Shown in pieces: positions 18,304 to 25,955 of a stretch of 64,000 nucleotides of DNA. A program made the position numbers and the translations under genes. Below the pieces are notes generated by a model, which saw only the letters and a program-made list of their open reading frames with translations, made no database searches and was not told the DNA's origin. Source of the DNA: Acinetobacter baumannii (GTDB lineage Bacteria; Pseudomonadota; Gammaproteobacteria; Pseudomonadales; Moraxellaceae); NCBI RefSeq assembly GCF_009759685.1, contig NZ_CP046654.1, positions 1,054,001 through 1,118,000 of the forward strand, in the 5' to 3' direction. Positions within the stretch are counted from its first letter, which is position 1. Each line of letters opens with the position of its first letter.

Positions 18304-18377
18304 AATGGCGAACTCCTTGTGTATTAAAGAAGAACTACCACGATTACTGCTAAATAATGGTGGCAGAACGAAGGGGG

Positions 18378-18534
18378 TTAGCAGACTGGTACACAAGGAC
18401 CCAGCACGCGCAAGCGCGTCCCCCTCCGTCCTACCATAGAAAAAAGGGGGACGTAAGGATCCAGTACTGAAAAGCAAGCTTTTAGTACTCTTGTGTAAAA
18501 GGGTCTGCTAAAACCCACTGGCAATGTGACCAGC
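18378..18534 (-). ncRNA. C4-like antisense RNA
   Basis: Minus-strand transcript with a sigma70 promoter at 18541-18569. It contains a hairpin with CTGG/CCAG, an AGTACT hairpin with AAAAGC/GCTTTT, a CGTCCCCC/GGGGGACG stem and a CGCGC/GCGCG hairpin. Arms AGCAGAC and ACACAAG (complement of 18503-18509 and 18490-18496) can pair with CTTGTGT and GTCTGCT (complement of 18391-18397 and 18380-18386). The same second arm also matches TTAGCAG and TACACAAGG in the leader of the 30-aa ORF (18347-18353 and 18315-18323). This two-site a/b, a'/b' logic is that of C4 antisense RNA; C4-like small RNAs have been reported in A. baumannii, as I recall. Confidence 0.6.
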
Positions 18535-25676: not shown

Positions 25677-25750
25677 GTTGTCTGTAGGTTTTGGAATAGA
25701 CCTTTTGACTGTGCCGCCTTAGGTGGTAAAGAAATTCGTTAATAAGAAAT

Positions 25751-25783
25751 GAAAAAAGCCCAACATCCTGTTGGGCTTTTTTC
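25751..25783. terminator. Strong terminator with AGGAT loop on the minus strand
   Basis: GAAAAAAGCCCAAC, 5-nt loop, GTTGGGCTTTTTTC. Near-perfect for both strands; on the minus strand it ends the CAGGA-rich RNA and its loop is itself a CsrA-type motif. Confidence 0.9.
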
Positions 25784-25955
25784 GTATTTCGTTACTAGGC
25801 ATACATCCTGTAATACCTCACGTCCTGGTGCTTAAACTTATTATTGTTGTTTTACGTTTTGGAACTTCCTGTTCCTGATGAGTTCATCATAGGCAATTCG
25901 TGAGATCATAGAAAGACGATAATTTCCTGAATGGATGTAGGAAAAAGCGTACATA
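25751..25955 (-). ncRNA. Candidate CsrB/RsmZ-like RNA that would sequester CsrA
   Basis: Minus-strand RNA of about 165-205 nt ending in a perfect terminator (25751-25783). It holds six CAGGA motifs (complement of 25925-25929, 25873-25877, 25867-25871, 25823-25827, 25806-25810, 25766-25770). Four are presented in hairpin pentaloops closed by C-G: GGAAC-AGGAA-GTTCC (25861-25875), CAC-CAGGAC-GTG (25819-25830), TAC-AGGAT-GTA (25802-25812) and the terminator loop CCCAAC-AGGAT-GTTGGG. CsrB repeats are CAGGA(U/C/A)G, matched exactly four times. An upstream TTTCCT/AGGAAA stem (25923-25944) may start the RNA. Promoter not clear; no GacA-type TGTAAG box seen. No coding potential. Confidence 0.65.

What the first reader, a model, noticed from the sequence alone, without database searches (positions are those of the whole stretch)
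25751..25955. CAGGA-rich hairpin RNA that looks like a CsrB/RsmZ homologue in Acinetobacter
Six CAGGA motifs occur within 164 nt on the minus strand, against roughly 0.1 expected at this base composition. Four match the CsrB repeat CAGGA(U/C/A)G and sit in pentaloops closed by C-G, one of them in the terminator loop itself. This is what CsrA/RsmA-sponging RNAs look like. I am not aware of a well-established CsrB-type RNA in this genus, although csrA exists there.
Basis: partly seen in the sequence, partly recalled or inferred. Interest (0 to 1): 0.87.

Follow-up and report, generated by a model that had tools for sequence, protein, structure and literature searches.

The report
Acinetobacter CsrA-sponge RNAs, also on plasmids
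The window holds one of seven copies, in this genome (likely Acinetobacter baumannii), of a short hairpin RNA gene that is predicted to be switched on by the regulator GacA and would soak up the global regulator CsrA; relatives sit in 144 of 149 Acinetobacter species genomes searched and on several hundred Acinetobacter plasmid records, so plasmids could feed into this control circuit.

Summary
In detail: six CAGGA lie at 25766-25929 on the minus strand, against 0.22 expected (0 of 10000 shuffles). Five are in the predicted RNA (about 25751-25879); the sixth lies in the promoter. The RNA folds into four hairpins, each with GGA in its loop, one being the terminator.

It belongs to a repeated family: six chromosomal copies here and one on a pMAC-like plasmid. 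In the genus, 144 of 149 species genomes match (median 6 per genome). The search model left out the promoter, yet 143 of 157 relatives carry a GacA/UvrY-type palindrome, TGTAnG-N6-CnTACA, 66-71 nt upstream (shuffled control 0.4%). Stems covary around GGA loops. Each of 149 genomes has one csrA match.

Copies sit on hundreds of Acinetobacter plasmid records, several beside toxin-antitoxin genes; of 23 copies examined, 23 keep the box and 20 keep at least three CAGGA.

CsrA-type RNAs were already predicted in A. baylyi (PMC5568370), and multi-gene Rsm sets exist in Pseudomonas; what my searches did not find in print is this family's size and its plasmid copies. Transcription and CsrA binding are inferred, not shown.

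The parts
25936..25953 (-). GacA/UvrY-type palindromic box TGTACG-CTTTTT-CCTACA (predicted activator site)
   Evidence: Read in the sequence; 0 mismatches to TGTAnG-N6-CnTACA, starting 69 nt upstream of the model start; one of 13 exact sites in the 4-Mb genome.
25886..25891 (-). predicted -10 element TATGAT (no conserved -35)
   Evidence: Consensus TATAAT at this place in the relatives: best hexamer matches 5 of 6 in 102 of 155; best -35 matches at most 4 of 6.
25748..25884 (-). RNA gene as matched by covariance model R1 (144 bits; this copy is in the model); predicted transcript about 25751-25879
   Evidence: Start inferred as about 7 nt after the -10; end from the terminator.
25861..25875 (-). 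hairpin 1, GGAAC-AGGAA-GTTCC, CAGGA 25867-25871 in the loop (CAGGA 25873-25877 overlaps the 5' side)
   Evidence: Folds; compensatory changes.
25837..25851 (-). unpaired A-rich linker AACAACAATAATAAG, five A-R-N triplets (possible Hfq contact, only suggestive)
   Evidence: A-R-N run median 4 in 155 relatives against a shuffled mean of 2.95.
25819..25830 (-). hairpin 2 with CAGGA 25823-25827 in the loop
   Evidence: Fold; short stem of 3 pairs, not part of the model's consensus structure.
25797..25818 (-). hairpin 3 with CAGGA 25806-25810 in the loop
   Evidence: Folds; compensatory changes.
25751..25783 (-). intrinsic terminator hairpin with CAGGA 25766-25770 in its loop
   Evidence: GGA in the last hairpin loop of 143 of 155 relatives.
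25925..25929 (-). sixth CAGGA, in the promoter between box and -10; probably not transcribed, not conserved

Best explanation
The minus strand at 25748-25884 encodes one copy of a repeated Acinetobacter RNA family that is predicted to be transcribed when GacA binds the palindrome at 25936-25953 and would then bind and titrate the host's CsrA, for which the genome has one gene, through GGA loops. Shown by sequence: the box, the -10, four GGA-loop hairpins, the terminator, covariation, seven copies in this genome, copies across the genus and on plasmids, one csrA gene and a gacA-like gene. Inferred: that GacA activates the promoter, that the RNA is made, that CsrA binds it, and that this frees CsrA-repressed mRNAs. 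In place of one large sponge (as CsrB in E. coli), Acinetobacter appears to spread the binding capacity over about six small genes per genome. Many plasmids carry further copies; those examined keep the box and mostly keep the loops, so the same signal would also raise sponge RNA from the plasmid.
For: Motif density beyond chance. CAGGA averages 3.42 per RNA against 0.31 in shuffles over 155 relatives; GGA in hairpin loops averages 2.95 against 0.48. Box: 143 of 157 relatives with at most 1 mismatch at 66-71 nt, control 0.38% of 3140 shuffles, although the model held no promoter; 131 of 155 within 2 mismatches of TGTAAG-N6-CTTACA somewhere in the 150 nt upstream (no control run), the site given for UvrY, whose strongest targets are csrB and csrC (PMC4682653, passages). 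In this genome 13 places match the box exactly against 2 for the reversed pattern; 7 of the 13 lie before the seven family copies and at least 2 others precede intergenic stretches with GGA hairpin loops. Changes on both sides in 24 and 22 of 26 pairs, 0 of 500 shuffles as high. csrA single in 149 of 149 genomes; GacA-like protein in 24 of 24 tested. A pattern scan of named genomes, independent of the model, gave a box-to-hairpin gap of 63-66 nt in 36 of 37 listed Acinetobacter loci against 6 of 41 listed loci outside Moraxellaceae. Relaxed Rfam scans hit RsmY along the full RNA, right strand, in 5 of 12 relatives and in the window.
Against: No transcript, CsrA binding or GacA dependence has been measured here. 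RsmY scores are far below the curated score (23-30 against 57 bits), and in the window the unrelated Thr_leader scores 30 bits, so terminators alone give such scores. The A. baumannii RNA-interactome and sRNA papers that I could search by word name no Csr/Rsm RNA of Acinetobacter in their main text. The GacA-like protein scores 266.8 bits against a cut-off of 280 for the UvrY/GacA model. Fourteen of 157 relatives have 2 or more mismatches in the box (one of them masked). Five of 149 genomes have csrA but no match (gacA is present in all five), and the two pMAC-type plasmid copies read have one CAGGA only. Many relatives are close kin, so the counts are not independent.
Confidence: 0.88

Rival explanations
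1. It is a GacA-controlled, Hfq-dependent base-pairing RNA whose CAGGA loops serve another purpose (stability, target pairing), with CsrA binding incidental.
For: A-rich linker with A-R-N triplets and a U-tailed terminator, both (recalled) typical of Hfq-bound RNAs; the pMAC-type copies keep box, linker and terminator but lose all but one CAGGA.
Against: The GGA loops are kept in most relatives while stems drift by compensating changes; the A-R-N excess is modest (median 4 against a shuffled mean of 2.95).
Confidence: 0.08
2. The family is a repeat of promoter plus terminator spread by mobile elements, with no CsrA role; clustering of CAGGA reflects copying of one ancestor.
For: Copies are found on plasmids and in clusters, often beside toxin-antitoxin modules; none of 10 related loci has the tRNA that flanks the window copy.
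Against: Copies diverge to about 70% identity and still keep box spacing, paired stems and GGA loops, which neutral copies would lose.
Confidence: 0.03
3. Plasmid copies are not sponges for the host but leaders or regulators of the toxin-antitoxin operon beside them, or decoys that titrate GacA.
For: In 7 of 22 plasmid stretches (L216, L226, L228, L231, L233, L234, L235) the RNA ends about 60-75 nt before a RelE/ParE toxin gene, and in one it ends 89 nt before VapBC; the pMAC type has one CAGGA. A DarT/NADAR toxin-antitoxin pair also lies about 1.2 kb from one chromosomal copy.
Against: In the other 14 the neighbour is NadS-RelE in the opposite orientation, an abortive-infection gene or no toxin-antitoxin gene directly beside the RNA; of 8 further genes near chromosomal copies that were scanned, none matched a RelE- or VapC-type family (3 matched no family at all); 20 of 23 plasmid copies keep three or more CAGGA.
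Confidence: 0.15

Closest known systems
RsmX/RsmY/RsmZ of Pseudomonas (Rfam RF00195 for RsmY, clan CL00106)
   Same: Short RNA with several GGA hairpin loops and its own terminator (recalled), palindromic potential GacA site upstream (PMC2375449, passage), several genes per genome including duplicates (rsmX-1, rsmX-2, rsmY, rsmZ; PMC7911923, abstract in listing); RsmY is the Csr/Rsm family hit along the full length at relaxed thresholds.
   Different: Scores far below the curated cut-off (0 of 20 loci reach any Rfam cut-off); more copies (median 6, up to 14 matches); copies on plasmids.
CsrB/CsrC of E. coli and relatives (RF00018)
   Same: Repeated CAGGA in loops (recalled); UvrY/GacA-type palindrome upstream (PMC4682653).
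   Different: CsrB is longer (model of 356 positions) with more sites (recalled), and its box is centred at about -183; here the box centre lies about 66 nt upstream of the predicted start and sites are spread over several small genes.
CsrA-regulating RNAs predicted in A. baylyi ADP1 (PMC5568370, Table 2, passages; earlier prediction cited there)
   Same: Same genus, predicted length about 119-139 nt, predicted to regulate RsmA/CsrA.
   Different: I could not fetch ADP1 by name and did not show that those two loci belong to this family; copy number, box and plasmid copies were not in the passages that I read.
RsmQ, a CsrA-like protein encoded on a Pseudomonas plasmid (PMC9928087, passages)
   Same: A plasmid part that plugs into the host Gac-Rsm system.
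   Different: RsmQ is a protein with CsrA-like RNA binding; here the plasmid carries the likely RNA antagonist behind the host's own type of activator box.

Membership tests
CsrA/RsmA-titrating small RNAs (functional class) | Several GGA motifs in hairpin loops | tested here: met
   Window: 4 of 5 GGA in hairpin loops; 155 relatives: mean 2.95 against 0.48 shuffled; 23 plasmid copies: mean 2.26.
CsrA/RsmA-titrating small RNAs (functional class) | Loops kept while stems change by compensation | tested here: met
   24 and 22 of 26 pairs with changes on both sides, 0 of 500 shuffles (alignments fitted to the model).
CsrA/RsmA-titrating small RNAs (functional class) | Non-coding, own promoter and intrinsic terminator | tested here: met
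   No ORF of 60 aa or more overlaps 25748-25884; -10 and terminator. Transcription itself not shown.
CsrA/RsmA-titrating small RNAs (functional class) | GacA/UvrY box upstream | tested here: met
   25936-25953; 143 of 157 relatives with at most 1 mismatch.
CsrA/RsmA-titrating small RNAs (functional class) | csrA and gacA in the same genome | tested here: met
   csrA; GacA-like response regulator (its best family is UvrY/SirA/GacA, but below that model's curated cut-off).
CsrA/RsmA-titrating small RNAs (functional class) | RNA is made and binds CsrA, relieving repression | not testable with these tools
   No expression or binding data at hand.
RsmY (Rfam RF00195) | Reaches the curated score of 57 bits | tested here: not met
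   Window 23.6 bits; 0 of 20 relatives.
CsrB/RsmB (Rfam RF00018) | Reaches the curated score of 71 bits | tested here: not met
   One weak match, 18.5 bits, in 1 of 12 relatives; none in the window.
C4 / AbsR25 and other known Acinetobacter RNAs in Rfam | Reaches the curated score at this place | tested here: not met
   C4 lies elsewhere in the window; AbsR25 scores 28 of 47 bits, mainly by the terminator and on the other strand.

The most novel reading that the evidence does not exclude
Acinetobacter plasmids carry GacA-switched CsrA sponges as standing cargo: by adding copies of a host-controlled antagonist of an essential global regulator, the plasmid turns the host's GacSA signal into a stronger release of CsrA targets, so that plasmid load itself tunes metabolism, stress survival and possibly its own transfer.
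Probability: 0.5. Interest if true: 0.88.

Novelty: new variant of a known kind. Interest (0 to 1): 0.77.

Why it matters
csrA is stated to be essential for A. [quoted passage not shown] That work explains GacA's effects by direct promoter binding; its main text has no Csr or Rsm term and mentions sRNAs only for P. aeruginosa. If the RNAs work as proposed, they would be the missing link between the two systems, and more than half of the exact GacA-type boxes of this genome (7 of 13, perhaps 9 or 10) would drive such RNAs. About six copies per genome could also explain why single deletions or screens might miss them. Plasmid-borne copies would be a way for plasmids to act on host physiology through RNA, the mirror image of the plasmid protein RsmQ.

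Tried and rejected
Rfam at gathering and at relaxed thresholds: no curated match at the RNA; relaxed matches such as Thr_leader, AbsR25 and Phe_leader lean on the terminator and were rejected. Enterobacterial plasmid matches (20 records; 18): the ten listed cover only 40-43 nt of terminator and were rejected as copies; the others, and the one Klebsiella record and the two, were not looked at. The two matches outside the genus (G222, G233) have E 9.5e-4 and 4.6e-4; antisense terminators alone reach 37 bits, so I count them as noise. 'Phage' records with copies are six contigs under one name, 46-128 kb, whose nature I did not check; not used. I tested whether the locus is tied to the tRNA next door: 0 of 10 related loci have a tRNA in the fetched stretch. 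G220 was looked at as a possible A. baylyi, but its positions do not fit the published ones, so identity of the published predictions with this family is open. A five-fold A-R-N run as proof of Hfq binding was rejected as too weak. A first claim that chromosomal copies have no toxin-antitoxin genes nearby was dropped: a DarT/NADAR pair lies about 1.2 kb from one of them. Of the six other boxes in the genome, one looks to lie inside a gene (judged from the sequence only) and one lies between convergent open frames, near the number (2) of the reversed-pattern control.

Full report
OBSERVATION. Six CAGGA lie on the minus strand at 25766-25929. Shuffles of the region give 0.22 on average and none of 10000 reaches six. 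The strand folds better than shuffles (z -4.2). The region is intergenic, between an MFS-type transporter gene plus a tRNA and a GFA-family gene, with no ORF of 60 aa or more over the RNA. The upstream-most CAGGA (25925-25929) lies between the box and the -10, and the five other copies aligned do not keep it.

A REPEATED FAMILY. The genome has 4.0 Mb in two contigs; the small one (9540 bases) has the length of plasmid pMAC and the same RNA region at the same place, and one search lists a plasmid of that length with the same region in A. baumannii ATCC 19606, so the genome is likely A. baumannii. It holds six more copies: three within 2 kb on the chromosome, a diverged one, another found with the covariance model, and one on the plasmid. 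I built model R1 from six copies, transcript only, without promoter. In the genus 144 of 149 species genomes match at E <= 0.001: 912 matches, mean 6.1, median 6, at least three in 134 genomes, maximum 14. Matches near the threshold may be terminator noise (antisense terminators reach 37 bits). In a family-wide draw 33 of 119 genomes match, 31 of them Acinetobacter; the other two are marginal. Hence the family is essentially confined to the genus among the Moraxellaceae drawn.

PROMOTER TEST. From 26 genomes that I chose mostly for few contigs (25 with matches) I fetched 125 stretches covering the places printed there, and with the seven copies of this genome obtained 158 matches; one antisense match was dropped. 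Of 157 RNAs, 92 have a perfect and 143 an at most one-mismatch TGTAnG-N6-CnTACA, the 143 all starting 66-71 nt upstream of the model start; 14 have more mismatches (one of them masked by N). Block-shuffled upstream DNA has at most one mismatch in 0.38% of 3140 trials. The consensus was read from my six copies, so I also tested the published UvrY site TGTAAG-N6-CTTACA (PMC4682653, passages): 10 of 155 exact, 81 within one, 131 within two mismatches, best place in the upstream 150 nt, no control run. A -10 is conserved, a -35 is not, as expected of an activator-dependent promoter. The RNAs include close kin and a few identical copies, so they are not independent. The named-genome pattern scan, which does not use R1, gives a gap of 63-66 nt in 36 of 37 listed Acinetobacter loci, against 6 of 41 listed loci outside Moraxellaceae (2 Moraxellaceae loci set apart); two of the 37 have only the one CAGGA of the pattern.

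STRUCTURE. On alignments fitted to the model 95.9% and 97.1% of cells pair, with changes on both sides in 24 and 22 of 26 pairs, no shuffle of 500 as high, and far above slid structures (fitted alignments lean towards the structure). GGA lies in the last hairpin loop of 143 and in the first hairpin of 136 of 155 RNAs. The window RNA has four hairpins, each with GGA in its loop.

PARTNERS. csrA (PF02599) is single in 149 of 149 Acinetobacter genomes; this genome's CsrA matches CsrA/RsmE chains of known structure (2jpp, 2mf0 and others; that these hold Rsm-type RNA is recalled). A GacA-like response regulator (receiver plus LuxR-type DNA-binding domain) is in 24 of 24 genomes tested, including the five without an RNA match. 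It falls short of the curated UvrY/GacA cut-off (266.8 of 280 bits), yet this is its best family. GacS was not searched for. Of the five RNA-negative genomes, two hold a boxed CAGGA element by pattern, with 0 for the reversed pattern in all eight genomes searched.

THE BOX SET. In this genome the exact box occurs at 13 places against 2 for the reversed pattern. Seven lie before the seven family copies. Three others precede intergenic, terminator-like-ended stretches of other sequence: C1:1822665 (8 GGA, 4 in loops, 0 of 200 shuffles as many), C1:1747170 (3 in loops, 3 of 200; relatives in two other genomes, L211 and L213) and C1:1747617 (1 in a loop, 60 of 200, so no evidence). The first two look like further CsrA-type RNAs; none of the three matches an Rfam family.

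PLASMIDS. A transcript-only query matches 321 plasmid records, 319 labelled Acinetobacter, 293 of the 321 over at least 80% of the RNA; a few such records are chromosome-sized (three listed). The pMAC-type query matches 290 records; the sets overlap. For scale, at least 1381 Acinetobacter records carry a RepM-like protein (limit reached). As contrast, the eight-GGA chromosomal RNA is found only in four records, each of at least 1 Mb. I read stretches of 22 plasmid records chosen for spread and small size: 23 RNA copies, all with the box starting 66-70 nt upstream and at most one mismatch; 20 have three or more CAGGA, one has two, and two (pMAC type) have one. GGA is in the last hairpin loop of 18 and the first hairpin of 19 of the 23, less than in the main set. 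No RNA feature is annotated at them, but the plasmid gene table carries no RNA genes. Seven sit just before a RelE/ParE-type toxin gene, one before VapBC, four face NadS-RelE, one precedes an abortive-infection gene; nine have no such direct neighbour. L233 also bears a predicted carbapenemase gene.

LITERATURE. CsrA-type RNAs were predicted in A. baylyi ADP1 (PMC5568370, passages with part of Table 2), and a 2025 paper draws a 'CsrB-like small RNA' in A. baylyi citing the 2006 prediction (PMC12442408, passages; the 2006 paper is not held). Word searches for Csr and Rsm terms in PMC12802169, PMC11472050, PMC5320573, PMC8567240, PMC11796373 and PMC5538643 show no Csr/Rsm RNA of Acinetobacter; the few hits concern csrA, other species or reference lists. 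Duplicated Rsm genes are known in Pseudomonas (PMC7911923, abstract in listing). Searches (listings only) gave no paper on a multi-copy or plasmid-borne family in Acinetobacter; subscription papers, including the 2018 primary transcriptome, are missing from the library.

VERDICT. What I did not find in print is the size of the family, the fixed activator box in it, its share of the GacA-box set and the plasmid copies. Expression, CsrA binding and any effect of plasmid copies are inferred.

Noticed in passing
L359 (G000:C1:1822200-1823200), about 530-717, + strand: Intergenic stretch after a GacA-type box with eight GGA, four in hairpin loops (0 of 200 shuffles), ending in a hairpin with CAGGA in its loop: a second, unrelated candidate CsrA-binding RNA, 99.6-100% identical in four other A. 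baumannii records.
   Followed up: partly
L358 (G000:C1:1746600-1748300), 571-810 and 1018-1250, + strand: Two further boxed, terminator-like-ended intergenic stretches in tandem; the first has relatives in two other genomes (L211, L213), the second shows no excess of GGA loops.
   Followed up: partly
L216 2701-2837 and L235 1572-1708: pMAC-type plasmid copies keep box, linker and terminator but only one CAGGA; 101 plasmid records match the pMAC query at 99% or more. Decayed or put to another use; unexplained.
   Followed up: partly
window 18356-18441, minus strand: C4 antisense RNA (RF01695, 79.9 bits), a phage-type RNA.
   Followed up: no
L357 (G000:C1:700-1500), box at 330-347: A perfect palindromic GacA-type box TGTAAGCTAAAGCTTACA near the start of the chromosome record, followed by a hairpin with GGA in its loop; role unknown.
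   Followed up: no
L008 1614-2948: A DarT/NADAR toxin-antitoxin pair (PF14487, PF22397) about 1.2 kb from the chromosomal RNA copy at L008 4146-4283.
   Followed up: no
L233 (plasmid pK09-14), 1242-1370: The RNA copy lies about 410 bp from a predicted OXA-24-family carbapenemase gene and 64 nt before a RelE/ParE-type toxin gene; described only.
   Followed up: no
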